In this document: positions 20,927 through 46,384 of the stretch, one piece after another
Position numbering within the stretch: position 1 is the stretch's first letter
Layout: every line of letters begins with the position of its first letter
Assembly: GCA_963922205.1 (NCBI GenBank)
Contig: CAWUHX010000004.1
Location: forward strand, 1-64,000
Reading direction: 5' to 3'
DNA length: 64,000 bases
Origin: Romanomermis culicivorax
Lineage: Eukaryota > Nematoda > Enoplea > Mermithida > Mermithidae
Position numbers and translations under genes: made by a program
The notes under the pieces: generated by a model
Seen by the model: only the letters and a program-made list of their open reading frames with translations
Database searches by the model: none
What the model was told of the DNA's origin: nothing

Positions 20927-20929
20927 ACT

Positions 20930-20943
20930 TGGCGAGACTGGCA
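20930..20943 (+). promoter_or_regulatory. Element 1 primer binding site (probable)
   Basis: TGGCGAGACTGGCA lies 3 nt downstream of the 5' LTR, where minus-strand synthesis is primed by a tRNA 3' end. It resembles the PBS of the TRIM (TGGCGAGGCTTGG) and of element 2 (TGGCAAGGCTGG). The primer tRNA is not identified. A similar CTTGGCGAGATT recurs at about 21007. Confidence 0.6.
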
Positions 20944-24855: not shown

Positions 24856-24858
24856 TAG

Positions 24859-27800
24859 GTACTCTTCCAAACCCCAGGAGGACCTGACTTAGTGGAGTCC
24901 AGTCCAACAGTGCCTTGCTCTCATAAACCAATTGGGATCTTTAACCATGGCACTGAATGGTCAACCAATTCTGGACATATTCATGTCAGTCAAGTACCTG
25001 TCAGCCTTCTTTGGAAAGGTCAATACAAAGTTTTTGATTTTAACACGCCTAGTCTTTTCCAAGATACCTTGACCTCCGCACCAACCGTCAACTATGCACT
25101 TTTTGGACAGTATGTTTATAAAACCCAACAAATTGAAAGCATACTGAAGGTTTTGGTAAACTATACATCTGAAATGTCCATCAACCCAGATGCAGTGTAT
25201 CAAACCATTACAGGTGCTGGATCTGGTCTAAAACAATCCATAGAAGGGGCTGGAAATGCTATTGAACACATTATAACTGGAACCCAACAAAATTTTGCAT
25301 CCCAAATGAATGTCCTACTCAAAGGTCCACTCCAACTTGTGTTTAACATTTTAGTGGTTGCACTTATAATTTTTATTTTGGGATGTATAATATACTTCTT
25401 ACTTCAACAATATTTCTGTAGAGGGAATGGTGGTATTCATTTCCCACTTTTTCGGCCACTCCCACCAACCTTGGGATTGGGTGCAGCATTACTCAGGCTT
25501 GCACGGCTCAGAACCAACCGGCCACCATCCTACAGTACGGCCACAAACCGCGCCAGTGCTGTACGATATCAACCAAGTGCACCTGAAGAGGAAAAATTAT
25601 CTCACATCGTGGCATCAAATTGCTGCTTTGGTGAGTTGAGAACCCCTCACATTGATGTAAAGATCAACAACCAATTTACAGTATCAGCTCTTGTAGATAC
25701 TGGAGCTGTTTTTTCACTTATCGACCATAAGTTGGCTAAACAAATTGATGGCCTTATTGTCATCCCAACAAGCTTAAAACCTATTGCTGCCAATGGACAA
25801 CAAATCAACCTCCTTGGCGCAGCTTATTTAACCATCTCAACCTATGACATTAAAGAAAGGGTCATTGTCCACATACAGGAGAACAGTACAACAGATCTAC
25901 TCCTGGGAACAAATTTTCTCTCCCGTTTCTCAAACATACAACTTAATTGGGAAAAATCAACCATAACCTTCAAGGCACAACCCATACCATGCCTTGGGAT
26001 GTTGTTTAACCCTGCCAAACAAAGGCGTACTGTACATTTAGAGGACTATCTTCAAATAGACCCTCGATCAATTGTAAGAACCTTTACAAAAGTCCCTACA
26101 AATTATGTGACAGTATCTGAAGTCCAATTTGAACCTAAGAAATTGGAAAACCATAATGTTTATTTTGCGGCTTCTGTCAACAATGTCATTGATGGCTGTA
26201 TTCAAGTTCAGGTACTTAACCCCAGTAACCACCCGGTGAAACTGTACCCAAATACAACCATTGGGGAAGTAACCGTTTTCTTAGATGAAATTCTAACAGT
26301 AAAAGACGTGCCACATCGACAAACCCCTGCCGTAGGAACAAAACAATGGATTGAGCAAAATGCACTCATATCGCCAACCATACCTAACACTGAAAGGATC
26401 GGACTGGTCAACCTTCTGTCCAAATATCCAAAACTTTATGCCTCTAGTGAAAAAGATACCGGCAGAACCCAGCTGGTCAGGCACAACATTCACACAGGGT
26501 CAAACCACCCTATACGGAAATATCCTTTCCGAACAGCTCCAAAAGAGAAAGAACTCATAACCCAAGAAGTTCGAGCTCTTGAGCAAAACAACATAATCAA
26601 GAAAAGCACTTCACCATGGGCCACCAATGCTATCCTTGTCCGGAAAAAAGATGGGGGGCACCGCCTATGTGTGGATTTCAGAGGATTAAATGAAATAACC
26701 AAAAAGGATGTCTATCCTCTCCCAAGGATAGACGACATTCTAGATACCTTAGGGGGCATGAAATATTTTACAACCTTAGACCAGGCTAATGCCTATTATG
26801 CCATCCCTATTGCCCCTGAGGATAGAGAAAAAACCGCCTTTACAACACCTATTGGCCTGTTTGAATTTCAGTACTTACCATTTGGTCTCTGTAACGCACC
26901 AGCCACTTTCCAGCGGCTGATGGATGTGCTTTTATCTGGTCTACAGTGGCAAACATGCCTCGTATACCTTGACGATATTTTAATATTTGCAAAAACCTAT
27001 CCGCAAATGTTGGATCGTCTGGATGAGATCCTCAACCGTTTAAACAAAGGAGGAATGAAACTTAGGCTCAACAAATGCCGCTTCCTCTATCCAGAAGTAG
27101 AATATCTGGGTCATCGGATCTCTGAACATGGTGTATTGCCCGACTCAAAGAAGTTGGAGGCAGTAAAACAAATGCCAGTTCCAACCAAAACCAAAGAGAT
27201 CAAAGCCTTTCTTGGCCTGATCTCCTATTATCGGAAATTTATTCCAAACTGTGCACAACATTCTTATCCTTTGAACAAGCTATTGAAAAAGGATGTACGA
27301 TTTGCCCGGGGTCAAGAACAACAAACCGCATTTGACACCCTAATAACCGCATTAACCAACCCTCCAATTTTGGCTCACCCTGATTTTCACAAACCTTTTA
27401 TTTTACAAACTGACGCCTCAACCACAGGAATAGGTGCAGTTTTGAGTCAAATTGGGGCGGACAACAAAGAACATCCAATCGCTTATGCAAGCCGTCTGCT
27501 AAAACCCGCAGAAAAGAATTATCCCATAACTGAGCTGGAAACCTTAGCAGTGGTCGAATTTGTGAAACATTTTCGCCCATACCTCTATCAACAAGAGGTA
27601 GTGGTCGAAACGGACCACACTGCAGTTAAAGCAGTTCTTGAGAAAGAAAACCCTTCGGCTCGCATAGCAAGATGGGGATTAGCCTTAGCAGGCTTTAAGC
27701 TGGACATCCGTCCAAAGAAAGGTACTGCAAACCAAAACGCAGACGCCTTATGCCGTCTGCCTAACCCTAACCAAGAACAAACATTCGACATTGAAAAAGA

Positions 27801-29250
27801 TGCTTTCCACAGGCCATTGGAAGCTCTAGATGACCAAACCGTGTCATCAGTTCAAGTTCAGGTAGATATTAAACGATTACAACAGGCTGACCACGATCTT
27901 AACCAAATCCTCACTAACCTTAACCCAAACCAAATGGAACTTGAGGAAAACACGTTTAACCTACAAGATGGAATTTTGCATAAATTCGAATCGGGAATCA
28001 ACAAAGTGGTCATCCCAGCATCTTTAACCAGAGAGATCATCAAAACCCATCATGATGACCCTCTAGCCGGACATTTTAGCAGTCGCAAAACCATTCGACT
28101 TATTTCTCAAAAGTATTTTTGGCCAACACTTAACAAAGATGTCCAGGAATACTGTAAATCATGTCGCCTATGCCAGATTAATAAACCAAGTCGGCATAAA
28201 CCTAAGGCCACATTAAAACCCATAACTGTGTCTGGCCCTTTCGAAAGATTGGGAGTAGACTGCATGGGTCCCTTAACCATAACCGAAAAGGGTAACCGTT
28301 TTATTGTGGTCTTTATTGACCATTTTACCAAATATGTTGAGGCATTTGCAACCCCTGATATAACTACCTCAACAATCGCAAAACTTTTCGTAGCTAACAT
28401 TGTTTGTAGGCATGGGGCACCCCGTGTTTTACAGTCAGACCGAGGAACCGATTTCACCTCCAACCTTATGGTAGAAATCACAAAATTATTTGCTACACAA
28501 AAAGTGCACACAACTGCATACCATCCTATGGCCAATGGCGAAGTAGAAAGGTCAAACCAAACCTTGGCTACTCGCATCCGCATGTATATTGGAGAGAACC
28601 ATGCTGATTGGGACGAACACCTCCCATATGCTGTTTTTGCGACCAACATCCACGCAAATGAATCAACCAACCATACACCTTTCGAACTTGTGTATGGTCG
28701 AACTCCAAAATTACCAGTGGACACAACCTTAACCTACAACCCTCCACTGCACTTCATAGATATGGAAACCTACAATCTAGAAGTAAAACGTCATTTCACA
28801 CAGGCCTTAACCATAATCCAACAACAGATTCAAACCGCACAGGAGAAGTATGCACAAACATACAATAAACGAACCCACAACATCCACTACAAAATTGGTG
28901 ACCTAGTCCTGAAGGAATCCCAACGACAACCACGCCGAGGGCTAACACATAAATTTATGCCTCTATTTTTGGGTCCTTATGTAGTAACTAAGGTCAACTA
29001 CCCTAACATAACCATACGTGATGTCAACAAACCAAACATCACAGAAACCATTCATGTGAACCGTAGTAAACCATACATACCTCGCAACCCTGAGGCACAT
29101 AAACCCATAACCACAGAAAAGCAACGACAACGTTCATCACAAATGGCACCACCAACGTCCGAAGACCAAGAACAGGAGGATCAAACGAGGACGTCCGATT
29201 TTTTCAAGGGGGACCATGTCACAGATAGTGACCTTAGTGATGAATTTTAA
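24859..29250 (+). CDS. pol: Element 1 Env C-terminus fused to Pol (PR-RT-RNase H-IN)
   Basis: 1463 codons, opening at the MITE edge without an ATG; before the insertion it was continuous with env. Residue numbers count from codon 24892. First comes the membrane-proximal Env part (TPGGPDL.ESSP..PC) with a transmembrane segment at about 147-174. One retropepsin follows, with DTGAVFSLI (Asp 269) and LLLGTNFL. The reverse transcriptase has CVDFRGLNE and the catalytic YLDD at 692-695. The RNase H has LQTDAS (Asp 841) and NADALCRLP. The integrase has an HH-CC zinc motif (THHDD..., CKSCRLC), a D1123/D1183/E1219 triad with 35 residues between the last two, and a GPYVVT chromodomain-like GPY/F module. 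The stop codon lies 34 bp inside the 3' LTR. Confidence 0.93.
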   Translation, partial: VLFQTPGGPDLVESSPTVPCSHKPIGIFNHGTEWSTNSGHIHVSQVPVSLLWKGQYKVFDFNTPSLFQDTLTSAPTVNYALFGQYVYKTQQIESILKVLVNYTSEMSINPDAVYQTITGAGSGLKQSIEGAGNAIEHIITGTQQNFASQMNVLLKGPLQLVFNILVVALIIFILGCIIYFLLQQYFCRGNGGIHFPLFRPLPPTLGLGAALLRLARLRTNRPPSYSTATNRASAVRYQPSAPEEEKLSHIVASNCCFGELRTPHIDVKINNQFTVSALVDTGAVFSLIDHKLAKQIDGLIVIPTSLKPIAANGQQINLLGAAYLTISTYDIKERVIVHIQENSTTDLLLGTNFLSRFSNIQLNWEKSTITFKAQPIPCLGMLFNPAKQRRTVHLEDYLQIDPRSIVRTFTKVPTNYVTVSEVQFEPKKLENHNVYFAASVNNVIDGCIQVQVLNPSNHPVKLYPNTTIGEVTVFLDEILTVKDVPHRQTPAVGTKQWIEQNALISPTIPNTERIGLVNLLSKYPKLYASSEKDTGRTQLVRHNIHTGSNHPIRKYPFRTAPKEKELITQEVRALEQNNIIKKSTSPWATNAILVRKKDGGHRLCVDFRGLNEITKKDVYPLPRIDDILDTLGGMKYFTTLDQANAYYAIPIAPEDREKTAFTTPIGLFEFQYLPFGLCNAPATFQRLMDVLLSGLQWQTCLVYLDDILIFAKTYPQMLDRLDEILNRLNKGGMKLRLNKCRFLYPEVEYLGHRISEHGVLPDSKKLEAVKQMPVPTKTKEIKAFLGLISYYRKFIPNCAQHSYPLNKLLKKDVRFARGQEQQTAFDTLITALTNPPILAHPDFHKPFILQTDASTTGIGAVLSQIGADNKEHPIAYASRLLKPAEKNYPITELETLAVVEFVKHFRPYLYQQEVVVETDHTAVKAVLEKENPSARIARWGLALAGFKLDIRPKKGTANQNADALCRLPNPNQEQTFDIEKDAFHRPLEALDDQTVSSVQVQVDIKRLQQADHDLNQILTNLNPNQMELEENTFNLQDGILHKFESGINKVVIPASLTREIIKTHHDDPLAGHFSSRKTIRLISQKYFWPTLNKDVQEYCKSCRLCQINKPSRHKPKATLKPITVSGPFERLGVDCMGPLTITEKGNRFIVVFIDHFTKYVEAFATPDITTSTIAKLFVANIVCRHGAPRVLQSDRGTDFTSNLMVEITKLFATQKVHTTAYHPMANGEVERSNQTLATRIRMYIGENHADWDEHLPYAVFATNIHANESTNHTPFELVYGRTPKLPVDTTLTYNPPLHFIDMETYNLEVKRHFTQALTIIQQQIQTAQEKYAQTYNKRTHNIHYKIGDLVLKESQRQPRRGLTHKFMPLFLGPYVVTKVNYPNITIRDVNKPNITETIHVNRSKPYIPRNPEAHKPITTEKQRQRSSQMAPPTSEDQEQEDQTRTSDFFKGDHVTDSDLSDEF
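29205..29216 (+). other. Element 1 polypurine tract
   Basis: AAGGGGGACCA directly precedes the 3' LTR (29217) and would prime plus-strand synthesis. It lies inside the pol coding frame. Confidence 0.7.
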
Positions 29251-29957
29251 ATGAAGCGTAAAATAATTTCTCATTCATTATTTCATAACATGTTTCGTTT
29301 TTATTATATTCATTTCTCCATTTTTATTTTATCGTGCATTGCATCATAACTGGATTGTTCATAACTGAACATCAGTTAATTTCCATCAACATAGAGTAGT
29401 CACGTTGACAACCTAAACATAAAGGTGTCACGTGGAAACCTAATGGAAAAACAACCAGAAATAGAAATACTTAGAGAACAGAACCCGATTCTCCTACGTG
29501 AGGACTCCAACAACATCAATGTCCTAAATGCTATCTATAACCGAAAATAGACAACCTAAAATAGAATCAAAATATAGAAAGGACTGAAGATAAAAAACCC
29601 TCTTCAGTTCGAAGAAGAACAGTCGATAACATTAGTCGATTCTTCGCTGCTCGCTCAACCTTTCGCGAGCTCCCAACCAAATTTGCCCAACTTACTGTAA
29701 CCTAAGTAAGTAACCTATTTTAACCATACTCCAACCGAGTATATCAACCAACCTTAACCTGAACCTTCAACCCTTAGAGAACAACCTATCTCTTCAACCC
29801 AACCAAAACCGAACCTCAACCTCACAACCTAAGAGTGACGCAAGTGCACGGTTAAACTCCAAAATTAATCGTGTAATTAATTGTAATAAAAAAATAATTA
29901 ATTCTTGCGTTCTTCTTACAGTTTGTCCTATCCCTACACAGCCCCCGGGTAGTGACA
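29217..29957 (+). repeat. Element 1 3' LTR
   Basis: 741 bp. By eye it differs from the 5' LTR at five positions. It encodes the last codons of pol (…DSDLSDEF then stop). Confidence 0.95.
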
Positions 29958-30151: not shown

Positions 30152-31608
30152 TGTCACGTGCCGCTCAATTCTCCAACGTCACGTGATCCCGATCATGCCG
30201 ACATTTTGTTATTTTTTCATGTTTCGTTTATTACTCGATCATGCTTTTGTTTATTTCATTTTTACACATGCATTTTGTGTTCGTTTTTATATTTTTATGC
30301 ATTTCTATGTTTCGTTTTGTTGTTTTTTTATTTCTTTACAAACGCGGGCTACAGTAGGCCCTTTAGCTAAAAACTTCCGCCAGTCGTGCTCCACGAGCAC
30401 ATGGCTATTTTTGGTGCGCTCACACACCTCTTATCATCAAAAATTAGCGTCGTTTTTGTTACGCAAAACGACTAGCTAAGTAGTTTTAGCTAAAGACGTT
30501 CATATGCTTAGCATAGGCACTGCAGCCGGCCTCAGTGCTAAACGCATGTGAATGAAAAAATGTCTATGTGCTCATAGGCATCTTCTGCATCGCGTCTAGC
30601 TGCAGAAGTTAGCTTGAGCGCCGAGAAACTCCGCCCAAGCTGCAGCTGTAGCCAAACATGTCCTTAAAAGGACATGTTTCTTTAGTTTTTCGCTCATTCT
30701 TGGGTTCACCAAGCTTTCATCCGGTTGTTACTTCGCGTCTGCCGCCCTGCTCAATTTGAATATTTTTATATACTCGACTGCGTCCGCCGCCTATTATTTT
30801 AAATAAATTTGCATACCCTTGCATTTCTTACTGCGTCCGCCGCTCACCGCCTACAGTACCCCGCTGCCCATCAGTGCCAGGTGTCCGACCGCCCCGGTTC
30901 GTGAATTAAACGTTGGAGTTTCGCCTCCCGCTCGCTCCCGCTCCCTCCCGCTCGCCGCCGCTCGCCGCCGCTCGCCGCCTAGGACGTTTGAGGATTGCAT
31001 CCCCCGCTCCCAGTGCCAGAAGACCGAAAGCATCCAGGGACTTGCCGCCCGTTGCGTCGTAATCGCTTGAGAAACAGGACTAGGTGAGTCTTCTCAGGGG
31101 ATTATTGTTATTTGTGGGTTATTTGTTGGGGAAATCCTTCCTAAGTCGTTTTCCCAAGGTTTCCACAGATAAGTAGGGCCTCCACCTCTCAGGTTCGGGC
31201 TAAAAGGGGCTGTCTGGTTCATAATCGGGTCCCATAATTTAGGTCATTTTACGGGTGACCCTGTCCCCACTCTCACTGAGTAGGACTCGGGGATTGTCGC
31301 ACCTAGCCTGGCAGCGTTGTCCGTTACCCTACAGCAAGACCCCAAGGACAACACAAGAGAACCAACTATAGACCTCTCTATAGCCACCATTTGCCAGGTT
31401 AGGCCCCAACGCCAACTTGGGAAGCCTGGGGAAAATGCCAGTATCCATCAGGAGTCACAGCCTATTACTCACTGTAATAGGATCAATCTGATATGGTTCA
31501 CCATCAATGTGACTTCCAAAACACAGTATTACCTGATGAGATACCCAAACCTCCCCAGCTCTCCCAAGATAAACATGTCATACACGTGACATGGCGTAAA
31601 ATGTGACA
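30152..31608 (+). repeat. Element 2 5' LTR
   Basis: 1457 bp, starts TGTCACGTGCCGC and ends AAAATGTGACA. It contains a 26-bp hairpin at 30654-30679 (arms AAACATGTCCTT / AAGGACATGTTT) and a GC-rich CGCTCCCGCT/CGCCGCCG block (about 30920-30980). Confidence 0.95.
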
Positions 31609-31622
31609 TGGCAAGGCTGGAA
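31609..31622 (+). promoter_or_regulatory. Element 2 primer binding site (probable)
   Basis: TGGCAAGGCTGGAA abuts the 5' LTR directly. It resembles the sites of element 1 and the TRIM, suggesting the same primer tRNA. Confidence 0.65.
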
Positions 31623-31624
31623 AA

Positions 31625-31985
31625 TCGACCTTAAGTCTGGCACTCGCCCTTAAGTGCAAAAATCTTCACCCTTGGGTCGGAAACTACCCCCAGGTCGGGT
31701 CAACTCCCATTTTAAGTCGGACAAGCCCCCTTAAAATCGGGTACTAGCCATCCAATAAGTCGGAGACCCCCCAGATTCGGGTTTACTGCCTAATGGGTCG
31801 GGAATGTACCTTATTTCGGATTACTGCTACTGTAAGTCCGATACCTCCCCTTATGTCGCGTATTATTACTGTAAGTCGGAATTTTTCCCGTGCCACCGAG
31901 AGTTATTACTGTAGGTCGGGAATTTATCCCTGAACATCAAATTTAGTTACTGTAAGACGGGATTTGCCCTTACGAGTGATCTAAA
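31625..31985 (+). repeat. Degenerate TAAGTCGG repeats in the element 2 leader
   Basis: Motifs of the type TAAGTCGG, GGGTCGG or AGGTCGGG followed by a C/T-rich run recur every 25-40 bp, later alternating with TTACTGTAAG. A related GAGTCGAGTTATTT triplication follows at 32055-32120. Confidence 0.65.
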
Positions 31986-32608
31986 TGTGATCTATATGTG
32001 TAAATAATTATCTCATGCGTGTGTATAACCCCCTATGAGTTATAAATTCCCCCTGAGTCGAGTTATTTATCCTCAGAGTCGAGTTATTTGTTACAGAGTT
32101 GAGTTATATATCGAGTATTCTGTATTTCTCCTCTGATTTATTCTGTACATTCCGCATACTTAATCTGTGTTGTAAACTACCTTATCTGTTCCTTTTCCCT
32201 TCTTCCCCCCCTTCCCTAATCCTGGGTGGTATACTGTAGCCCTCCGGGTGGGTGCCATTACAGTACGCCTGTGCCCATTCCCGTACAGTAACTACAGTAT
32301 ACCCATACGCGGGTACTGGTATCACAGCTGTAGGGGTTTACGGCCTCTCCTGACTGTTGGTGGTCCGTGACCCCATGATACAGTACACCCTCCACGTATG
32401 ATTCTGGACGTCATACGTGGCTGCGATTTGTTAATTGTGTACAGTATTTTTGTCTGTCGGCGGAAACTGTCGGAATTGCTCACTTTTCCGGCCCCAAAAA
32501 ATTTTACAACGACTGTTTACACATTTAGCACGCGTATGTCCATCTCTCGCCTTCCCCGTCTTTAACTATTTTCTTTCCCTTTTCCTTTCTCGGTCATCTG
32601 GGCGGTGT

Positions 32609-32647
<39 letters not shown>
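32609..32647 (+). repeat. Poly(A) run of about 38 nt in the leader
   Basis: An almost pure A homopolymer. It could mark an old retrotransposed insertion or expansion within the leader. Confidence 0.8.
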
Positions 32648-32651
<4 letters not shown>

Positions 32652-32792
32652 CTGTTTTCCGGATGCCACCGCTACAGTATGACACCCTTGCGTAAGTTCG
32701 TCTATCTTCTTCATTTCTACTTACTGTAAGGTCTGCTTCTTCTACTTTCCGGTTGTTGCATCTCGAACATAGACTTTACGGGTCATGCTCTT

Positions 32793-33500
32793 TGACGTCA
32801 GCAACGACAACGTTACGGGTTGTTGTTGTTGTGTGGTTCAGCCTCACGGATGCAACCACTGACGTCTGCAACAGCCGCTTCACTTGCTGTTGCTTTAAGG
32901 GGTGGGTAGCCCTCCGGGTCCTACTCCTGACGTCAGCAACCGACATTACGTGTTGTTGTTTAAGTTAACACTCCAGCAGTAATGACTTCAGACGTCTGCA
33001 ACAAGTGAAGCCAATGTTGTTGCAACAGGTTCGGCTGGTTCTCTGCACCCCATCTGTGACGTCAGCAATGGTGACGCACCGTGTCACCATTCAAAGATGT
33101 GCAGGTCTTACGGGTGCCACATCTGACGTCTGCAACAACTGCATCTCATGTCATTGACTTAAGGTATCAGACCCTCGGTTCCACCTTTTGACGTCAGCAA
33201 CGGCACCATCACGTGTTGCCGTATACCGATAGCTGGCTTCAGGGCCCTATTGCTGACGTCAGCAATGACAATGTATCATGTTCTCGCAGTAGGAGTTGAG
33301 ACTACATGATCCTATTCCTGACGTCCGCAACGGTAACATTACGTGCTACTGCAGGGGTTCTGTCGGCCTTAGGCACGCACCCCTGGCGTCTGCAACTGCG
33401 ACATGATACTTGAATACTCTTATCCCAGGCACCTGCAGTCAGCACCAAGGTCATGTGTTGGTTCATACCCCTACCTTTTGACGTCCGCACCAGGTTACTG
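32793..33500 (+). repeat. Array of about 12 CRE-like 65-bp repeats in the element 2 leader
   Basis: TGACGTCA or a one-base variant starts at 32793, 32860, 32928, 32990, 33057, 33124, 33189, 33254, 33319, 33384, 33434 and 33479, with an outlier at 33820. Spacing is 62-68 bp for the first ten. Each core is followed by GCAAC/GCAAT and, about 15 nt on, by GTTG or a related complement, so each unit can form a small hairpin. TGACGTCA is the palindromic site bound by CREB/ATF-type bZIP proteins, so an enhancer or insulator role is possible by analogy with the Su(Hw)-site array in the mdg4 (gypsy) leader. Confidence 0.8.
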
Positions 33501-35268
33501 TCGGCCCTATGAGTATTCCACTTGAGTTGTAGGTGGTCGCTGGCGCATGGTCCTATCACCTACCTCTCTTGTCCAAGGGTTGTGTGTGTGTCTGGGGGCT
33601 GATGCCTGGGAAACATCAGTCCACATACATACACCACCTGAGATGCTCACTAGCCTGCGTACTGATCAGGTTGTCCGCCCGGGTAGCGGCACTGTTGATC
33701 AGCACGTGGCTGTTTTCAAGCTTTAACTGCAGGTTGGAACGAGTTACACTCGGCCTCAGCTGGGTTGGTTGTCTGACTCGGGCAGGCAGCAGACATTTGC
33801 AGTCGGTACTGCCTGTGTCTGACGTCTGCAAGGGTTCGGCAATCTTCTTGTAAATTTCTTATCTAAATTCACTCATTCTCTTTCATCTCATCGAGCTGTC
33901 ATACATAGATCTTCTTTAGTGTCCCCGCCGTAGTGGTTCCCAAGGGACCGCGGCACAGCCTCTGGTTGGGCCTAGAGTGTATAGGACCCCCTGTCATATT
34001 ACATTCACTCGAACACCTTCGTTAACTGGCTTAACGATGCCCGCGCTAGAGTCACCACTGACCCAGAGTCCGCCTCCGCGGTCCACCCTCTATTAGTCAT
34101 GTAAGTAATAGGCACCGTTGAGTCCGCCTCAGCGAAGGTATTGGGTACGCCTCGATACATACTTTACACTCATATTCAATCAGGGACACCTTGTACCCGT
34201 GATCCCTTAGATGTTTTCGGGTGCGCCCTCAAAACATCCAGAGTATTTCATTTTAACTGACTGAGTGTGTCAGAATAGCACCCTTGGTACCCGTGCTCCT
34301 TCCCTCTTCTACTGTGTGACCTGCGAACCTCACTTCATCTCAGTGATCGGCAAACCCGGCCACCAGCTGTGTATAATACTCCTGGAGAGTGTCCGTTCTG
34401 TTCGGAATGCGGGCTCCCGTTTCGGACACGGCTGTAAGTTACTTGCGAATGTCGTCCAACACGGAACCTCCTGTATAGTCCATCTCACTATGCAGAGATC
34501 GCAATCGCTCCTGGCGAGTGAGGCCCGTTGCGTAACTGCGCGACCCCCTTTGCGTAACTGGGTTTGTAAATTAGTTTTGTCCCTATTTATTGCTCCCTCT
34601 TAAGTTCATTTTCAGTTGACCCCATCATTTTCACCGTGTGCCACTTTATGCGCTACTCCTGGTGAGTAGGATCTTGCCGGCCACGAGTCCGCCTCGCCCC
34701 AAGGTTTGTAAACTAGTACAGCGGTCGAGCCTCCAGGAAAAATCCCTCCTGAGCGGGTTCATCCGTCATCTCTTTTCGGCAGGAAAACCGCCTCTTCTCC
34801 CCTCTTATCTCTGATATTTCATCCACTTCAGCTATTGCCATTGCCGGGTCCAGGCCCCAACTCTACATTTTGGTCGGGATCAATTCCCCCATACCTCAGG
34901 CCATGCCTCTGTCCATCACGGGCGACCAGATAAATTCCCTTCTGCGTCACCCTGATGTACTCTGATCTTACATCTTATAATCCTATTCCATTCTAGCTCC
35001 CTTTTCGTGGTCGCTAGTCTTAAGCTAAATCAAGTTTACATTACAAACGCCGTCGCGCACGCGTTTCCCGAATTCACGCGCTCTTCCGCCGCGAATTCAA
35101 AAGTAGTATTCACTTTCACTTTACACAATAGAGACACCCCGTCGTTCCTGCCGTCTCAGTACCCAGCCTGTACAGACCAGTGAGCGGCTCTCTATCCAAT
35201 TTGACCTAATTGCTTCACGGGCAAGGACCTCTGTTCTAACCACCTTATGGGAAAACGAACCCTCGGAC
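33501..35268 (+). other. Remainder of element 2 leader
   Basis: About 1.8 kb without a convincing gene. It contains the motif GAGTCCGCCTC several times (about 34066-34130 and 34686). Open frames are short and low in coding character. Confidence 0.5.
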
Positions 35269-38200
35269 ATGAAGTCGGAAGCTGATCTCCCTTCACAGAT
35301 CGAGAACAAAGTCCAGGCAGCATTTGAGAATGCTCTTGGACCCCTCAACCAAAAGTTAGAGGCCATGAATGGTCGGAGGCACCCTCCCGTGTCCAGCTTT
35401 ATGGCCCCTCCCACCTTCTCCGGTGCTTTTCGTGAGTCTATCACCGATTTTATGTCGCATCTTACTCGTTTCTTTACACTCCAGGGTGTAAGCGAAATGG
35501 ATCATGTGTATAAAATCGCCTTTCTGGAGTCATGCCTCACGGGTCCTGCTCTCGCCTCCTACCGGGACTTTAGCAGTAGCACTCCGATACCTACCCGCTA
35601 CGAAGAGTTTACGGCTTTTCTACGGAGAGATTTTCCGGTAGGGCCCGACTCTGATCTGCATCAGCAGCTGATCCAAGATCGACTGCAGAAGCCAACAGAG
35701 TCCGCGATAGTCTACCTTGAGCACCTCAAGAGACTATCCAGGGTAGCGTATCCAGATCTCGCGACGGATGTCCGAGATTCTATCATCAAACCTATCTTTC
35801 TGCGGGGACTGAAGCCAGTCCTCCCAGATAGTATCAAGTTTAAGGAGTTCACGACTCTTGAAGAGACACTCAAGGCAGCCTGTTACGCAGAATCCCAAAT
35901 CTTTCGGGACGAGATCCGGTACACTGCTCCATCTAACGCCGTTTTCTCTTCAGAACCTAAACACGCCGGATATAATCCCGAAATGCCTAACAGAAGCGCA
36001 AACGGTCGTCAGAGCAACGCTCCAACATCGTCATCCTCCGCCGATGAGGTTCGCCGCTTGAAACAGGAAATGGCCAGGCTCACGGCCCACGTAGCGAAGC
36101 TCACGGCCCAGCAACGTGCACCCACGCCAATCCAACAGACGCCGCCTCCACAGCCGTCGACACCAAATCAGTCCGCCGGGCGACGCTCGTCGGGAGCACA
36201 CCTTCAAACGTGCTCCTTCCACGGACTGTGTACACATAGCGACGCCGACTGCCGGGCCCAGCGTCCCACCGGTGCTGCTCCCGGTAACAACGCCGCTAAC
36301 GGTGGTCGCTGTTATTTTTGCCGTACACGTGCTCACCCCACGGACCGATGTGATAGGCCATGCCCTCATTGTCGTCAAGTGCGAGTGCACCGATCAACTG
36401 CCTGTCCGCAGCGCAATCCGGCAAACACGGGTGAGAATGTCTACCAAGATACTGGTTATTCTTCCCAGGGGACAAATGTGTATCATCAAAGAAATGGTTA
36501 TCACCCTCCCAACGGGATAGGAAACCAATATCGGCAGCCCATACGCCGCAACAACGCCGTTGGGGCTACCGATGGCCCTCCTCATCCAGATCCTCTTGAC
36601 CTGGATGATGAGGCACTTGCTGAACACCTGACAGATTCTTCACAACAGTGTTATCCTGTCTGCGTAATCAGTATTGGATTTTCAGTGGTCCAAGCAGCCC
36701 AGGTACCCGTACCGATAAATGTATCGGACATACCGCTGCCACCACCACCACCAAAGTATGGGATGCCGGTCACCCTGGACCCCTCGACGACACCGCAGTT
36801 TGTTGGCCACGCTAACATCCTCGCATCGTATCGCATTCCTAAAATTAAGACTGCCGAGCCAACTCCAGCCGCCAATACGACGTCTTCGGCGCCACCGGCC
36901 CGCATCGTCCCTCCAGGACCACCGCCTTCGATCCCCACGGATTCGGCTGCGGAAGCCCTCGACCAGGTCGAGCCCATGAATTTGTCAGGTATACTACCTT
37001 CCTCTTCAGGTGATCCTAGAGTAGGAACCAGAAATCTATCTCAGTCCACGACTCTATCGATTTCTTGTTCACAGCGCCATCGCCCGTTTAAGACGCGATG
37101 TTGGCCATCTGGTCAGTCGACCTGGCCAAGAAATACCCGCATTTGCCGTGGACTCTGCTCAACGAGCCATCGAATGTCGAAGCGCTCACGGCCGCCGACG
37201 TCGTGCTTGCAGCACCCGTCTCAATGCGCCTCTTACGACCCGATGTCGCCCGACGGGCACTCGAGTTCATTGCCAATGGGACTATCACCATCTCGCCCGT
37301 CGAGAAGTTCTTATTGGACGGGGAGCCATCCTCGCCTTCAGTCGATGCCATCCGCCGAGCAGTCGAACAGGCCAGTCGGATCCTCCTGCCTGCTGCCGCC
37401 GCTACATCACCGGCAGCAGCGCCTCCTGTTGCCGCGACATCGCCAACAAAAATGGACATTACTGCTTCCTCGCCCCCGGCCAAGGAACCCGCAAATGATC
37501 CTACACCGCCGGCACCAGCCCAACATACATCGTCGGCAACAGCCCAAGTCAAATCGCCGGCACCAGCCCAAACGACATCTCCAACCGCTGCGACCAAGTC
37601 GCCCGTCGTCGAACACATGGCCATCGACGAGACCTTACGTCCGGTTAACGAAGATGTCAGCATCGTTGAGGAATCTCCGTTCCCAACGGCAGTCGCCCCA
37701 CGGTCACCAAAAATCGGTATCCTCCGGGAAATCCACCCGTGCGGTGGATTGGTCCTCGATTTCCCCGGCCAGGAACCAATCTCGTCCGACAGCGACGAAG
37801 AAGAAATCTGACACTGCCCCTCAGGCCAGATTTGTGAAATTGAGTGAACACTTACAAATCACGTTTGTACAGTTGTTTTTGACAATAAAATTGACCTTGG
37901 TAGCATCACTGTTTCTAGGGGTGAGTTTGTCAGCACCGGCGGCTCAGTATCAATTTTGCGGTCTCTCAAGAAGCGGACATCCACTTGAGTTACCCCAGCG
38001 TGTAGAGTGTAAACCACCGCAATCTTCATGGAGCCCGCGGCGCATGAATGTTACGGTGTATGTCCCTAGCTCAGACCCGATTACAACCACAGCGTGGAAA
38101 TGCACATTGCGCTCCCGCAAAGTCTGCACCAACACTGGTTTCTTCGGCTCTAGGGGCATCACTGCAGACGTCATCACCACTCAGCACTTAGCGCCTGCGG

Positions 38201-41200
38201 CATGCACGCTAGCACATCGCACTAAGATGTTTGGTTCACAAAAACTTGTCGGCATTCGCCCTGGCTTTTATAGCACAAACCAAACATTGGAAGTGATGTA
38301 CGAATGGTGCTGCAGCGACGTCTGCAAGACAGTGACTAACCTCTTCATCGAGGAGGGACAAGTCGCTTCGTGGGATGGCACTACGGCCCTAAGCACCTTA
38401 GGCGATGTAGGTGGATGCAGCCCCACTGCAGGCCAGTGCACTACTCTAGACGGGGTCATTGTCTGGCCTGCACAAAACTTCACGGCGCGGTGTCATTATC
38501 ACCCCAAGGGAAATTACACTGCATCCATGTCAGGGAACCACGTCATCATCGATGATCTACAGGTTGCCCTCAAGATCCCGGGAAACTCCCGCGTCTTCCA
38601 ACTGTGCCCAGAACTACGTTCCACCACAGTCCGGACGGATCAGGGTCTTCTCCTTCGCATCCACGGGAGATACAATTTGACCCAAAACTTGTTCAGAGTG
38701 GCAACGGACAGCCGTCCCGATCCTGTCAATGCCAAACTGAACTATCTGGCTCAGCAGATCAAGGAGTCGGAAATTAACGGTTTCCGGTTCACGTGGCTTG
38801 AGCTCTGCTCTCACGTTCAACGCTATCTTGATCTGACTTGGCAGTTGCTTCGCTTCGACCCTACCCTGGGTGCCCGGGCATTCCTCCAGAGGAATGACCT
38901 GACGGCGGAATTCACAGGCGATGCGCTGACAATATGGCCGTGTCAGAAGGTCAACGCCACCTACGTTTACCACTCGTACCGGGTGGGGAACGTTTGCTAC
39001 AAGTACTTACCTGTACAGGTTGGCGGCACCATCTACTTCGCCACCCCCGGTGGTCCGGATCTCATTAAATCTAGCCCAATTGTGCCGTGTCATCACCACT
39101 TTACAGGGATTTTCCGAAATCGCTCGGGCTGGTTTACTGAGTCTGGCGCGGTCCATGTGAGCCACATCCCACTGGAACTCTTCTGGAAGCAGCGCTTCAA
39201 CATCACTCACTTTGAGGCACCGGCGCTCTTCCATGACCAGTTGGCGATGACCCCTTCAAACTTTGCCTTCTTTAAACAGTACGTTTACAAGACTGAGCAA
39301 ATTGAAGCGGTACTCAACCTGCTGGTAAACTTTACCGCTGGCCTATCCCTGCAACCTGACGCCATTTACCAGGCCTTTGCAGGGGTAGGAACCGACATCA
39401 AGGCCTCTCTGGAAGGTGTCAGTTTGGCAGCAAACCATGTTATTACGGGTCAACAACACACCCTCGCCCAGGGCTTGCATGCTGTCCTGAGCGGGCCGGT
39501 CCAGTTGATCTTTAACATCCTAATTACCCTGACAGTGCTGATCGGTGCCGGATACCTTGCCTATCTTGGTGTATCCTATTATCTCAGCTACCCTCTGCGG
39601 AGCAAACAGGTCAGGTTTGTTAGCCGTTTCTCCCCGTTGGGTCTTTATCGCAAAGTCCAACGCTGGATCGGTTTTCACTACGTGCAAAACGATGTGCCCT
39701 CCCAGCTTGACCGAATCACACCGTGTTTCGTCGTGCTGCTGGACACCAAGGAAACTCCTGCTTTCCTTGACACGGGTTGCCCACGCACTATCATTAGCCA
39801 ACGTCTTCATAAGGCCTTGGCTAAAGAAAGTCCGAAGGCGGTCATGGCGTTCCAGCAACATCACGACTTTAACCCATTGATGAGCATCAATGGTAAAGCC
39901 GTTCATACCATCCTTTCGGGACCATATGAAATCATGTTGCCCGGAAACCGCCAGCCGAACACACGGATCGATATACATCTCCATGTGTGCAAGACTACGT
40001 CTCCCTTCTGGGCACCTGTTGACCTCATACTCGGACTGGACTTCTTAGAACAGTTCAAGAACATTATGTTTGACTACCAACGTAATGTTTGTCGGCTGGA
40101 CGCGGTAGAATTACCCCTCCTGCTGACCACGCCAGAGATTGACCAGATCGACCCCTGGTGGGAGAACACCCGTGCTCTCTCGCGAAACTCACACAGGTCG
40201 GGATCACGATCGCGGTCCAGGGCTTCGTCCATCTCTCGGCCACACTCTCGGGCCTCCTCAGTTGCCTCATCACGTGGGTCAACTAGGGGATCCCGGGCCT
40301 CCTCTAGACGGGCAAGTCGTCATCTGTCGACCTTGCACGGGTCAGGCTGCCCTCGACCTCCGCCTGGAACTTCTCCAGTTACGCTAGAGAAGGGCCGATA
40401 CCGTGAGCCAAGTGATTCAGATGCTCCGGCATCACCCGTGCCAAACGCCCCTCCGCTATCGGACACCGAGATTGAATCACTAGGAGCTACTCAGAGTCCG
40501 AAGGATCACTCAGACCACGTACTAACGGTGCAGGATGAGTCCACCCTTCTGAATGACCCGGAACCCTCCGTCGGATACGCTCTAGTAGGTCTTCTGCGTC
40601 GTACAGGATTGCCAATTCCAAAGCGGTCCGGTAAGACCAAACACGCTTGTGGTGCCACCACACCTGATTCCGGTCATGTGGTCACTGCTTTTTACCCAAA
40701 TGATATTCGGACACCCCATATCAGAGTTCTCCTCAACAACTGGGTAGAAGCGAAGGCACTGGTCGACACAGGAGCTGTTTTCTCACTCCTGGACCACAAG
40801 TTAGCGGCCCAGCTGCCCAACTTGTCACTATCACCAACCAGGGCACGCCCTATCGCAGCCAATGGGTCCCCGATCCCACTGCTAGGAGCAGCCTACATCA
40901 CAGTTACAGTGGCTGATGTCTCTGAATGGATTCAGGTCCAAATACAGGAGAACTGTTCAGCTGAACTGGTCCTTGGAACCAACTTCCTCGGCCGGTTCAA
41001 TTGTGTCAGTTTGAACTGGGAGAAATCCTTCCTCCAGTTCAAAGAAAGTAGAATCCCCTGTGACGGTCTCATCCACAGCCCACCTTCTGCCCGCGGTGCT
41101 TTGCCCCTGAAGGACTTGGTGATTCTAGAGCCTCGCTCCCTGACACGGTTCACTGTGCCTGTCCCACCAATCTATACGAACGTGCCTGAGGTGGCCTTCT

Positions 41201-44200
41201 TTCCGAAGCACCTCACGGGATCGCAAAGACACGTATATTTTGCTGGAAGCGTGAGTACCGTGACCAACGGTCACATACCACTTCAGGTAGTCAACCCGAG
41301 TACTCATTCCGTGGTTCTCTACCCGCACACGACCATCGGTCATGTGCAGATGCATAGTGAGCCCTCACGGGATTCACCCGTCGACTCAGACACCGTCCTC
41401 GATCGTCAATGGGTCGAGGCCAATGCTGTAATCTCACCGGACATCTCCTCTCGGGACCGGGCAGCATTACTCGATCTGCTGGTTGCATACACCGACCTTT
41501 ATGCTCTTGATGAAAAGGACACAGGTTCCACTGATCTCGTCCAGCACGAAATCAGCACGGGCGATGCCCGCCCAGTCCGCCGTTTCCCTTACCAGTCCTC
41601 ACCTAAGGAAAAGGATCTCATCATGCAAGAGGTCAAGGCGCTCCAGGAGAAAGGTATTATTCGGCCGAGCACGTCTCCGTGGGCTACTAATACTGTCCTG
41701 GTGCGCAAGAAAAACGGTTCTCACCGTATGTGTGTCGACTTTCGTGGTCTTAACGAGGTCACGAAAAAGGATGTCTACCCTCTCCCACGGATAGATGACA
41801 TTCTCGACACACTCAAGGGTATGAAGTATTTCACTACCCTTGACCAGGCTAACGCTTATTGGTCAATCCCGATTGCCGAGGCCGATAAGGAAAAGACGGC
41901 TTTTAATACGCCTATTGGACTTTACGAATTCAATTATTTGCCTTTCGGTTTATGCAACGCGCCAGGGACATTTCAACGCCTTATGGACCTCCTCCTTACT
42001 GGAATCCAATGGCGCACGGTTCTGACTTATCTCGACGACATTTTGGTGTTCGGGAACTCTCACACCCAAATGCTTGAGCACCTGGCAGATGTGTTCGCCC
42101 GTCTTCGCTGGGGTGGAATGAAGCTCAGACTGAGCAAGTGCAAATTCTCGCACTCAGAGGTAGAATACCTAGGCTATCGCATCTCACAGAGCGGCCTAGA
42201 ACCTGACCGAGCCAAGCTGGCCGCCGTCCAAAACCTACCCATTCCACAAAACGCCAAAGACATCAAGTCCTTCCTAGGCCTCGTGTCTTACTACAGGCGT
42301 TTCATCCCTGGTTGTGCCCGGCTCAGCGAGCCACTCACCAAGCTCTTACGGAAGGAAACTACTTTCCAGTGGTCAAAACCTCAGCAGGAGGCGTTCGATG
42401 AACTCCGCCGCCTGCTGACCAACCCTCCTATCCTGCGCCATCCGGACTTTTCGAAATCCTTTATCCTTCAAACTGATGCGAGTATTTCGGGGATAGGAGC
42501 GGTTCTTAGCCAGTTAGACGAAAATGGATACGACCATCCTGTCGCGTACGCCAGCCGAGGGTTAACAGCGGCCGAGAAAAATTACTCCATTACAGAACTG
42601 GAGACTCTCGCTGTTGTCCATTTCGTCACGCACTTTCGACCATACCTCTTCCAGCACGAGGTGGTCGTTCAGACTGACCATACCGCGGTCAAAGCAGTGT
42701 TGGAGAAGCCTAACCCCTCTGCTCGGATCGCTCGGTGGGGACTCGCGCTCACCGAATTCAAACTGACAATTCGGCCGCGAAAAGGTCAGTCTAATGGTAA
42801 TGCTGACGCATTATCACGCCTGCCGGATCCTAACTCCCTCACCGGTCAGAGTATTGATGATACTCCCCTTTACAGACCTGAGGGGCATGTCATGATGATC
42901 ACCGATGGTGCGCAGCACCTGGCGCGATCCAGGACCTTGACCGATGGTGTGCAGCACCTGGCGCGTTCAAGTAATTCAGCACCGATCACTGTTGGCGCAG
43001 AGCGCCCGGTACGATCAGAGTCTTATGCCGAGATATCCGTTGGTGCGCAGCACCCCGACCTTTTCGCTACTCAGCTGGAGGATCCGGAGTTAGCCGACAT
43101 CATTCGCTCTCTTAAGCCTCTGGGCGACCAGAATGATGTGCACGGCTACCATCTGTTGGATAACGTTCTTCAGAAATGGACAGGCGAGTCCAATAAGATC
43201 GTCATACCCCGATCCATGGTTACTACCATTATCCGGGCTCATCATGATGACATCTTAGCTGGACACTTTGGTGCTAAACGTACTGCGCGGCTCATTGCTC
43301 GCAGATACCACTGGCCGTCCCTCAGTCGGGATGTCAAGTCCTTCTGTCAGCGGTGTGATCTTTGCCAACGGAATAAGCCCGCTCGACAGAAAACCACTGC
43401 GACCCTGAAACCTATCACCATCACGGGACCGTTTCACCGGGTAGGTGTCGACTGTATGGGACCAATGACCACTAGCGAAGCTGGCAACCATTTCATCGTA
43501 GTCTTTATCGACTACTTTACAAAATGGGTCGAGGCTTTTGCTACTCCGGACATCACTGCGCACACCATAGCCCGGCTGTTTGTAACGCAAATTGTCTGCC
43601 GGCACGGGGCACCGCAGATTCTTCAGTCAGATCGTGGCACTGATTTCACATCCAAACTGATGGCTGAGATCACTGCGATCTGCGCAACGAAGAAAATCCA
43701 CTCTACCGCCTATCATCCGATGACCAACGGCGAAGTGGAAAGAGCTAATCAGACGCTAGCCACACGGCTACGTATGTATGTTCATCAAGGACATACCGAT
43801 TGGGATGAACACCTACCATACGCTGTGTTTGCCGTCAATATCAGAATGAATGAGTCAACAGGGTACTCGCCCTTTGAACTCATGTACGGTCGCACACCCA
43901 TGCTCCCTGTTGATGCCGCGCTCTCATTCAACCCTCCGGCCCATATCATTAATGTTTCCTCATATGATATGGAGGTCAAACGTCATTTCACGAATGCGTT
44001 AACCTTAATCCAGAGTCGGATTGAGAAAGCACAGGAAGCCTATGCACGGTCGTACGACTGGAAGGCACATGATGTCTCGTACAAAGTAGGGGATCAGGTG
44101 CTCAAACTGCGCACCTCCAGCAAACGTGGACTCACTCCTAAATTGCTGCCCATCTACGATGGACCCTACCTTGTAACAAGTGTGGCATATCCCAATGTCA

Positions 44201-44409
44201 CACTTCGTCTCGAGATGGATCAGGAAGACACTGTACATGTCAACCAGCTTCGACTTTACGTGTCCCCTGAACAACCGAGTGAAGCAGAGGATACACCTCC
44301 CACTTCACAGGCAACAGGTTCGGCACCCTTATTGTATCCCTCAATAAGCCGGGACTTTACACCGAATCTGATTGACCCACATCTTGATGCAGAGGTCCCC
44401 GACCCGTAA
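35269..44409 (+). CDS. gag-env-pol: Element 2 polyprotein: Gag-Env-PR1-PR2-RT-RNase H-IN
   Basis: 3046 codons in one frame from ATG 35269. Gag spans about 1-570, with capsid and zinc knuckles at about 315-380. Residues 607-848 are covered by a better-looking frame (37098-37811), so may not be real protein. Env spans about 864-1441: signal-like hydrophobic segment 864-893, Cys-rich ectodomain, GDALTIWPC and a transmembrane segment 1411-1441. Protease 1 has LDTGCPRTI (Asp 1501) and LILGLDFL. A Ser/Arg-rich linker lies at about 1638-1688. Protease 2 has [10 protein letters not shown] (Asp 1833) and [10 protein letters not shown] has YLDD at 2254-2257. RNase H has TDAS (Asp 2403) and NADALSRLP. 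Integrase has HH-CC, then D2728, D2788, E2824 and a GPYLVT module. Unlike element 1, no furin-like site is evident in Env. Confidence 0.92.
36989..37074 (+). other. Possible 86-nt mini-intron at the end of gag
   Basis: A donor-like CAG/GTATAC and a pyrimidine-preceded acceptor TTTCTTGTTCACAG bound 86 nt. Removal would shift gag into the -1 frame and stop it at TAA 37089-37091, 6 nt before the ATG (37098) of the overlapping frame. A second donor CAG/GTGATC at 37010 gives the same frame. This is only a motif observation. Confidence 0.25.
37098..37811 (+). CDS. Overlapping -1-frame ORF between gag and env, function unknown
   Basis: 237 codons starting at ATG 37098, seven nucleotides after a same-frame TAA. 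It ends at TGA 37809-37811, where the env signal segment begins in the long frame. Its codons follow the RNY pattern (GTC GAA GCG, GCC GAC GTC), while the long frame here is a basic Ser/Pro/Arg/His-rich string that looks like an out-of-frame translation. The N-terminal half (about 80 residues, [40 protein letters not shown]) looks folded and helical. The second half is Pro/Ala/Thr-rich with an acidic end (SDSDEEEI). I recognise no family. It may be an accessory protein, a Gag extension reached by frameshifting or splicing, or the result of two compensating indels. Confidence 0.6.
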
Positions 44410-44927: not shown

Positions 44928-46384
44928 TGTCACGTGCCGCTCAATTCTCCAACGTCACGTGATCCCGATCATGCCGACATTTTGTTATTTTTTCATGTTT
45001 CGTTTATTACTCGATCATGCTTTTGTTTATTTCATTTTTACACATGCATTTTGTGTTCGTTTTTATATTTTTATGCATTTCTATGTTTCGTTTTGTTGTA
45101 TTTTTATTTCTTTACAAACGCGGGCTACAGTAGGCCCTTTAGCTAAAAACTTCCGCCAGTCGTGCTCCACGAGCACATGGCTATTTTTGGTGCGCTCACG
45201 CACCTCTTATCATCAAAAATTAGCGTCGTTTTTGTTACGCAAAACGACTAGCTAAGAAGTTTCAGCTAAAGACATTCATATGCTTAGCATAGGCACTGCA
45301 GCCGGCCTCAGTGCTAAACGCATGTGAATGAAAAAATGTCTATGTGCTCATAGGCATCTTCTGCATCGCGTCTAGCTGCAGAAGTTAGCTTGAGCGCTGA
45401 GAAACTCCGCCCAAGCTGCAGCTGTAGCCAAACATGTCCTTAAAAGGACATGTTTCTTTAGTTTTTCGCTCATTCTTGGGTTCACCAAGCTTTCGTCCGG
45501 TTGTTACTTCGCGTCCGCCGCCCTGCTCAATTTGCATATTTTTATATACTCGACTGCATCCGCCGCCTATTATTTTAAATAAATTTGCATACCCTTGCAT
45601 TTCTTACTGCGTCCGCCGCTCACCGCCTACAGTACCCCGCTGCCCATCAGTGCCAGGTGTCCGACCGCCCCGGTTCGTGAATTAAACGTTGGAGTTTCGC
45701 CTCCCGCACGCTCCCGCTCCCTCCTGCTCGCCGCCGCTCGCCGCCGCTCGCCGCCTAGGACGTTTGAGGATCGCATCCCCCGCTCCCAGTGCCAGAAGAC
45801 TGAAAGCATCCAGGGACTTGCCGCCCGTTGCGTCGTAATCGCTTGAGAAACAGGACTAGGTGAGTCTTCTCAGGGGATTATTGTTATTTGTGGGTTATTT
45901 GTTGGGGAAATCCTTCCTAAGTCGTTTTCCCAAGGTTTCCACAGATAAGTAGGGCCTCCACCTCTCAGGTTCGGGCTAAAAGGGGCTGTCTGGTTCATAA
46001 TCGGGTCCCATAATTTAGGTCATTTTACGGGTGACCCTGTCCCCACTCTCACTGAGTAGGACTCGGGGATTGTCGCACCTAGCCTGGCAGCGTTGTCCGT
46101 TACCCTACAGCAAGACCCCAAGGACAACACAAGAGAACCAACTATAGATCTCTCTATAGCCACCATTTGCCAGGTTAGGCCCCAACGCCAACTTGGGAAG
46201 CCTGGGGAAAATGCCAGTATCCATCAGGAGTCACAGCCTATTACTCACTGTAATAGGATCAATCTGATATGGTTCACCATCAATGTGACGTCCAAAACAC
46301 GGTATTACCTGATGAGATACCCAAACCTCCCCAGCTCTCCCAAGATAAACATGTCATACACGTGACATGGCGTAAAATGTGACA
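44928..46384 (+). repeat. Element 2 3' LTR
   Basis: 1457 bp, equal in length to the 5' LTR and about 1% different by eye. The hairpin is at 45430-45455. Confidence 0.95.

What the first reader, a model, noticed from the sequence alone, without database searches (positions are those of the whole stretch)
35269..44409. An envelope gene sits between gag and pol, all in one 3046-codon frame
In element 2 a glycoprotein with signal segment, Cys-rich ectodomain and transmembrane anchor lies upstream of protease-RT-RNase H-integrase, in the same open frame as gag and pol. Retroviruses and env-bearing Ty3 (errantivirus), Pao and tas-type elements place env downstream of pol. Element 1, with unrelated LTRs, has the same order, so the arrangement is inherited and not a chance rearrangement of one copy.
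Basis: partly seen in the sequence, partly recalled or inferred. Interest (0 to 1): 0.92.

Follow-up and report, generated by a model that had tools for sequence, protein, structure and literature searches.

The report
Retroelements with envelope inside the polyprotein
A young-looking family of virus-like jumping genes in this genome keeps its envelope (cell-entry) gene between the capsid and the replication-enzyme genes in one unbroken reading frame, whereas the standard description puts the envelope gene last.

Summary
Confirmed. ORF 35269-44409 (3046 codons), between 1457-nt LTRs (98.8% identical, 4-bp TSD), reads Ty3-type capsid, signal segment, viral fusion glycoprotein (Pfam Monjiviricetes_fusion, E 4e-14), TM, protease, RT, RNase H, integrase. 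The order is inherited: 104 of 104 scored genomic copies keep the env-protease stretch stop-free (68 in frames of at least 3042 codons), and other families in this genome share the layout. Of 25 database proteins found, 12 Ty3-like ones have this env before pol or directly after gag (7 complete gag-to-integrase ORFs); the only two with it 3' of pol are BEL/Pao-like. Env is under purifying selection in the polyprotein frame (40 synonymous:16 nonsynonymous).

Two corrections. Element 1 is out of frame in the window, but most sister copies are not. And in 37098-37811 selection acts on an overlapping -1-frame ORF of 237 codons; the polyprotein frame there is kept open with free amino acids.

Best mechanism (inferred): a Gag-Env-Pol polyprotein threading the ER membrane, cut by signal peptidase and its own protease(s). 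No RNA, protein or fold evidence; deep RT branching is unresolved; the key comparator paper (Chary & Hayashi 2025) could not be read.

The parts
30152..31608 (+). 5' LTR of element 2 (TG..CA)
   Evidence: self-BLAST 98.8% to 44928-46384; ends, TSD AAAC
44928..46384 (+). 3' LTR of element 2
31609..35268 (+). 3.7-kb leader between 5' LTR and ORF; ORFs inside it at most 112 aa, no gene recognised by eye (not searched against families)
35269..44409 (+). Gag-Env-Pol open reading frame, 3046 codons
35437..35883 (+). Gag capsid, Ty3_capsid match
   Evidence: E 4.6e-7
37069..37818 (+). gag-env linker in the polyprotein frame: basic (R+K 45, D+E 4 over 237 residues), amino acids not conserved
37098..37811 (+). 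ORF-X: overlapping ORF of 237 codons in the -1 frame, ATG and TGA kept in 60 of 60 other copies fetched, under purifying selection, no Pfam match
37858..37935 (+). internal signal-like segment of Env (hydrophobic, followed by APAA-Q)
37939..39480 (+). Env ectodomain, Cys-rich; Monjiviricetes_fusion match at about 38725-39162
39481..39576 (+). Env transmembrane anchor
39706..40101 (+). extra retropepsin-like domain PR1 (FLDTG ... LILGLDFL), right after the Env tail; Pfam matches below cut-off
40690..41070 (+). second protease domain PR2, the one shared with relatives
   Evidence: E 1.2e-6
41701..42183 (+). reverse transcriptase (RVT_1)
   Evidence: E 4.6e-37
42469..42759 (+). RNase H
43204..43719 (+). 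integrase (H2C2 zinc domain and rve core)
20186..20926 (+). 5' LTR of element 1 (partner 29217-29957)
29217..29957 (+). 3' LTR of element 1
21361..23241 (+). element 1 gag (PNMA match E 3.8e-4, below cut-off; BLAST match to relatives' gag); out of frame with env in this copy
23388..24608 (+). element 1 env, first part (Monjiviricetes_fusion E 1.1e-9), interrupted to about 24891
24892..29250 (+). element 1 env C-terminus, TM, protease, RT, RNase H, integrase in one frame

Best explanation
Elements 1 and 2 belong to a lineage of Ty3-like, envelope-bearing LTR retroelements that carry a Monjiviricetes-type fusion glycoprotein (the chuvirus/bornavirus kind; that it is class III is recalled) between gag and pol and have kept gag-env-PR-RT-RH-IN in one reading frame. 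Most likely mechanism: the genomic RNA is translated into one Gag-Env-Pol polyprotein. Gag stays in the cytosol, the internal signal segment opens the translocon, the glycoprotein is put into the ER lumen and trimmed by signal peptidase, the TM stops transfer, and Pol emerges back in the cytosol, where the protease(s) directly behind the Env tail release Pol and Gag. In element 2's family the gag-env linker is overprinted with a second gene, ORF-X. Shown: order, single frame, inheritance across copies and families, purifying selection on env and pol in that frame, selection on ORF-X in the -1 frame. Inferred: a single capture, translation as one polyprotein, membrane topology, cleavage, infectivity.
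For: Order and frame. In the host genome, 104 of 104 scored copies are stop-free in env-PR, 68 of 104 in frames of at least 3042 codons. Further families: gag in 16 of 16 upstream pieces; in the 8 whose frames were listed the env frame is open for 674-797 codons up to env, and in the 6 whose gag hits were printed gag lies in that frame; 4 of 4 downstream pieces run env C-terminus-PR-RT-RH in one frame of 966 codons. Database: 12 Ty3-like proteins with env before PR/RT or directly after gag, 10 of 12 with a gag match in the same ORF (weak, E 0.001, in P0031), 7 complete through integrase. Selection in frame 0 among 8 copies: env 40 syn:16 nonsyn, third-position p 3e-8; PR2-RT 48:8. TM after env in 12 of 12 relatives; signal-like segment before env above my threshold in 9 of the 11 whose ORF covers that stretch (P0010 and P0029 below it). 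In 10 of 19 rows examined, element 2 included, no in-frame Met lies in the signal core or within 25 residues before it (element 2: nearest 79 residues upstream), so Env there is most simply read from upstream.
Against: No RNA or protein data: a spliced message that joins an upstream AUG to env-pol, or removes env, is not excluded. In 9 of 19 rows a Met lies in the signal core or within 25 residues before it, so independent initiation is possible there. Amino acids of the frame-0 linker 37098-37808 are not conserved (17 syn:85 nonsyn), which is odd for an ordinary translated product. How excess Gag is made is unexplained. A single origin is not shown: in the 20-row RT tree the env-in-the-middle rows need 2 changes and one clade is not rejected (AU p 0.32), but P0031 falls apart from the rest; in the 13-row tree they need 4 changes, no better than shuffled labels, with weak deep support.
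Confidence: 0.7

Rival explanations
1. Same order, but env-pol is expressed from a spliced subgenomic RNA (as errantivirus env is), so Gag-Env-Pol is not the working precursor.
For: Errantivirus Env is typically made from a spliced RNA (PMC12992720 passages). 3'-splice-like sites at 37009 and 37074 (ranks 2 and 5 of 477 AG sites by my rough matrix) lie upstream of ORF-X, and the leader has GTAAGT-like donor motifs.
Against: No strong acceptor-like site directly before env: rank 36 of 477 in element 2, 29 of 392 in element 1. Splicing alone would not explain why frame 0 is kept open through the linker: 0 stops made by shared variants against 4.0 expected, P 0.012.
Confidence: 0.3
2. Gag and env-pol are joined by a programmed -1 frameshift, as the window copy of element 1 suggests.
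For: In the window copy env lies in the -1 frame of gag, and an AAAAAAC heptamer sits in register at 23193.
Against: In 8 of 10 sister copies the env frame is stop-free across the boundary, against 3 stops in the window copy, so the shift is a lesion of this copy; 7 relatives are complete single ORFs.
Confidence: 0.02
3. Env is a passenger: a captured glycoprotein read through as part of Gag-Pol without entry function.
For: Nothing here tests fusion or budding; Env sits inside a polyprotein, and its selection (40:16) is somewhat weaker than that of PR2-RT (48:8).
Against: Clear purifying selection; cysteines and TM conserved in relatives 34-48% identical to it.
Confidence: 0.08

Closest known systems
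Metaviridae (Ty3/Gypsy), with Ty3 as solved reference
   Same: Ty3-type capsid match, PR-RT-RH-IN order, TG..CA LTRs; RT-RH closest in the PDB to Ty3 (308 bits; next 202 for 8r0s, 131 for 7kse, recalled as caulimovirus and foamy virus)
   Different: Env lies between gag and PR; the ICTV profile puts env downstream of integrase
Errantivirus / insect ERVs (gypsy, ZAM)
   Same: env-bearing Ty3-like LTR elements, potentially infectious
   Different: Errantivirus env is F-type and from a spliced RNA (PMC12992720 passages) and lies 3' of pol; here it is Monjiviricetes_fusion-type and 5' of pol in one frame
Anakin and other BEL/Pao elements with chuvirus glycoprotein (PMC7642597, passages seen)
   Same: Same glycoprotein family in BEL-like P0016 and P0023
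   Different: Different pol (BEL/Pao) and env after integrase in P0016 and P0023
Lokiretroviruses (as described in PMC9040795, passages seen)
   Same: Env related to Mononegavirales glycoproteins
   Different: Lokiretroviruses have a dual RNase H; only one RNase H region matched here

Membership tests
Metaviridae (Ty3/Gypsy) | pol order PR-RT-RH-IN | tested here: met
Metaviridae (Ty3/Gypsy) | RT nearest to Ty3 RT | tested here: met
   Ty3 308 bits, next kind 202; PDB chains only
Metaviridae (Ty3/Gypsy) | RT tree places it with a named Ty3/Gypsy clade | tested here: inconclusive
   deep branches unsupported; Ty3 was the only named reference
Metaviridae (Ty3/Gypsy) | env, where present, downstream of integrase (ICTV profile) | tested here: not met
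Errantivirus | F-type Env in a separate 3' ORF | tested here: not met
   Env matches PF24664 and lies 5' of pol in one frame
Anakin / BEL-Pao | BEL/Pao-type pol | tested here: not met
   no BEL-type domains, Ty3-type RT
Monjiviricetes-type glycoprotein (PF24664) | profile match above Pfam cut-off | tested here: met
   51.9 bits, cut-off 27; 37.3 bits for element 1
Class III fusion fold | fold similarity to known class III glycoproteins | not testable with these tools
   structure prediction interrupted, then put off and switched off; sequence search of the PDB gave no glycoprotein
Lokiretroviruses/retroviruses | dual RNase H (tether plus RH) | tested here: not met
   one RNase H region only by Pfam; a degenerate tether was not looked for at fold level

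The most novel reading that the evidence does not exclude
A retrovirus-like lineage with alphavirus- or flavivirus-style logic: one Gag-Env-Pol precursor threads the membrane, so capsid, spike and replication enzymes are made and localised together, with a protease placed right behind the Env tail. In one young family the gag-env linker is overprinted by a selected accessory gene while the polyprotein frame is only kept stop-free.
Probability: 0.5. Interest if true: 0.93.

Novelty: new variant of a known kind. Interest (0 to 1): 0.85.

Why it matters
The descriptions I could read place env 3' of pol, as its own ORF or from a spliced RNA. A many-copy, apparently young lineage with env inside the gag-pol frame shows another way to build an enveloped retroelement, and makes questions about Env expression, assembly and env capture by Ty3-type elements testable. 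Dezordi et al. 2023 reported no clear evidence of a jingchuviral glycoprotein captured by Gypsy elements (PMC10084718 passages). The overprinted ORF-X is a second finding: a selected gene inside a linker that must also stay open.

Tried and rejected
Programmed -1 frameshift in element 1 (AAAAAAC at 23193): rejected after sister copies showed the env frame open across the boundary. (first alignment of that junction) mixed in four loci that were not turned to the right strand, and one search's env counts did the same with five; both were redone with strands corrected. In one search three query pieces (e2_IN, e1_PR, e1_IN) were cut out of frame and gave no usable hits; integrase was mapped again for 8 proteins, and for the others rests on their precomputed Pfam domains and motifs. 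Spliced env message: my rough 3'-splice matrix (frequencies recalled) gave no strong site right before env. Synonymous shuffling is not specific evidence for the dual frame: polyprotein frame open given ORF-X P 0.026, ORF-X open given the polyprotein frame P 0.006, but the control third frame was also low on stops (3 against 7.0, P 0.024). Viral-contig scans with env (A1) and RT (A2) alignments found nothing. The env-only protein search returned 1 protein, with the candidate cap reached. L104's second open frame looks like low-complexity overlap. A TTAGG x6 pattern gave 0 matches; the host was not identified. Env fold: not obtained. P0015, a Ty3-like protein without a match to this env, has a C-terminal TM-like segment that may be another Env type 3' of pol; not followed up.

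Literature searches for the order. One search, on six phrases such as gag-env-pol, found 0 papers; no paper describing this order was seen in the listings or in the passages read (PMC12440569 also abstract and outline; passages of PMC8556966, PMC7642597, PMC10084718, PMC9040795, PMC13172572, PMC8220671, PMC12859917, PMC12992720, PMC5408684, PMC7879559). [quoted passage not shown] I know it only from citing passages, so I cannot say it does not describe this order.

Full report
WHAT IS THERE. The window holds two LTR elements with both LTRs. Element 2 spans 30152-46384 (LTRs 1457 nt, 17 differences, TSD AAAC) and element 1 spans 20186-29957 (LTRs 741 nt, 5 differences, TSD TGTG). Element 2 has one 3046-codon frame, 35269-44409. 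Pfam on pieces gives, in order, Ty3_capsid, Monjiviricetes_fusion, aspartic protease, RVT_1, RNase H, H2C2 and rve. On the env piece alone the glycoprotein match is E 4.1e-14, 51.9 bits against a cut-off of 27, with a Borna disease virus G match below its cut-off. A hydrophobic signal-like segment precedes the Cys-rich ectodomain and a TM follows it. Element 1 has the same order with a glycoprotein match of E 1.1e-9. In the window it is broken: gag and env are out of frame and env is interrupted.

IT IS A FAMILY TRAIT. The host genome (G000, 359 Mb, unnamed) holds at least 104 copies of element 2's env-protease stretch. All 104 scored copies (of 3329 first-look candidates) are stop-free there, the others 98-99% identical to the window's, and 68 of 104 lie in frames of at least 3042 codons. 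With element 1's env as query, 116 matches from 103 scored candidates appear, including element 1's own relatives and other families at 41-47% identity over their long matches; of 73 rows at 45-47%, I tallied 72 (leaving out one with a 1058-codon frame), and 38 lie in frames of at least 2450 codons. I fetched 16 upstream and 4 downstream pieces of these families. Gag was found in 16 of 16 upstream pieces. In the 8 whose frames I listed the env frame is open for 674-797 codons up to env, and in the 6 of them whose gag hits were printed gag lies in that frame. All 4 downstream pieces run env C-terminus, PR, RT, RH in one frame. For element 1's family, 8 of 10 sister copies have the env frame open across the gag-env boundary, against 3 stops in the window copy.

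RELATIVES ELSEWHERE. Three protein searches gave 25 distinct proteins. Fifteen carry this env: 12 Ty3-like, 2 BEL/Pao-like by their precomputed Pfam domains (P0016, P0023), and one env-sized protein without context (P0027). In all 12 Ty3-like ones env precedes PR/RT or directly follows gag; 10 of 12 have a gag match in the same ORF; 7 are complete from gag to integrase (P0006, P0008, P0009, P0010, P0028, P0029, P0031). P0031 is the weakest: its env matches only at about E 1e-8 to 1e-12 and its gag at E 0.001. P0007 and P0012 begin at env, P0013 ends in env, P0011 and P0012 are cut in RT, and P0030 lacks a recognisable RT. In the two BEL/Pao-like proteins env lies after integrase. A TM follows env in 12 of 12; a signal-like segment above my threshold precedes it in 9 of the 11 whose ORF covers that stretch. 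A size filter in the searches may hide elements whose env is a separate short ORF, and the env-only search hit its candidate cap. P0015, Ty3-like and without a match to this env, has a C-terminal TM-like segment that could be another Env type; I did not follow it.

SELECTION. Among 8 copies of element 2 (window plus 7), differences in env fall 11/6/39 on codon positions 1/2/3 of the polyprotein frame (40 synonymous, 16 nonsynonymous; third-position p 3e-8); PR1 and the following stretch give 9/4/35, PR2-RT 7/3/46. So env is maintained as a protein in this position.

AN OVERLAPPING GENE. In 37069-37788 codon usage (trained on the element's own other coding stretches) favours the -1 frame in 6 of 6 windows; elsewhere in 35269-40548 the polyprotein frame is beaten in a few scattered windows only. 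In 60 further copies, variants shared by at least two copies inside 37098-37808 fall 67/18/17, with the 67 on third positions of the -1 frame (p about 3e-11): 65 synonymous to 37 nonsynonymous in the -1 frame, 17 to 85 in the polyprotein frame. ATG 37098 and TGA 37809 are kept in 60 of 60. Yet the polyprotein frame stays open: 55 of 60 copies are open in both frames, and shared variants make 0 polyprotein-frame stops where 4.0 are expected from the same kinds of change, P 0.012. Synonymous shuffling is weaker and its control frame was also low on stops (see Tried and rejected). So 37098-37811 looks dual: ORF-X is a selected protein, and the polyprotein frame there is a basic linker that only has to be open. 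ORF-X has no Pfam match, no convincing PDB match (best E 0.009), no match in the 20 pieces of other families and only an antisense E 0.046 match in L071. How it is expressed is unknown; in 56 of 61 copies the -1 frame is open for 26 codons upstream of the ATG.

HOW IT PROBABLY WORKS. In 10 of 19 rows (some of them copies of one family), element 2 included, there is no in-frame Met in the signal core or within 25 residues before it; element 2's nearest is 79 residues upstream. There Env is most simply read from upstream, so I infer a Gag-Env-Pol precursor with Gag in the cytosol, Env in the ER lumen and Pol in the cytosol. In the other 9 rows an internal start is possible. The alternative is a spliced message that supplies an AUG; I found no strong acceptor-like site right before env, but the matrix was rough. 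Element 2 also has two retropepsin-like domains in a row, the first directly after the Env tail.

WHAT IT IS CLOSE TO. RT-RH is nearest to Ty3 in the PDB (308 bits; next kinds 202 and 131). RT trees keep element 1, element 2, P0006 and P0007 together (100/99), but the deep order is unresolved. In the 20-row tree the ten env-in-the-middle rows need 2 changes (1 of 500 shuffles as low) and one clade is not rejected (AU p 0.32); in the 13-row tree without the longest branches the nine need 4 changes, as shuffled labels do. The Env tree is also weak at depth; the pairs element 1-element 2 and P0006-P0007 recur in both. The ICTV Metaviridae profile states that Env, where present, is encoded downstream of integrase (PMC7879559 passages). 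Chuviral glycoprotein capture is known for BEL/Pao (Anakin; PMC7642597 passages), and the 2023 follow-up found no clear Gypsy case (PMC10084718 passages). The survey most likely to have met such elements, Chary & Hayashi 2025, is not held, so priority is not settled.

LIMITS. No RNA, protein or fold data; host not named; the relatives' hosts are mostly unknown (only P0023 of the env-bearing ones carries a species name, Anisakis simplex); copy counts are lower bounds.

Noticed in passing
37098-37811: Overprinted ORF-X in the -1 frame of the gag-env linker, under purifying selection across 60 copies while the polyprotein frame stays open.
   Followed up: yes
39706-40101 and 40690-41070: Two retropepsin-like domains in tandem in element 2; the first matches other proteases of the lineage at 19-26% identity over its length. 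In element 1 and in the downstream pieces of the other families the gap between Env TM and protease leaves no room for it.
   Followed up: partly
31609-35268: Long 3.7-kb leader between 5' LTR and gag without a long ORF and with several donor-like GTAAGT motifs.
   Followed up: no
44440-44480 and 44890-44930: A near-duplicate stretch follows the ORF and again abuts the 3' LTR; the tract before the 3' LTR of element 2 is a poor polypurine tract.
   Followed up: no
55723-56652: Repetitive stretch carrying a 309-codon open frame without Pfam match.
   Followed up: no
24609-24891: Stretch that interrupts element 1 env; parts resemble 17999-18120 and 19136-19269 of the window.
   Followed up: no
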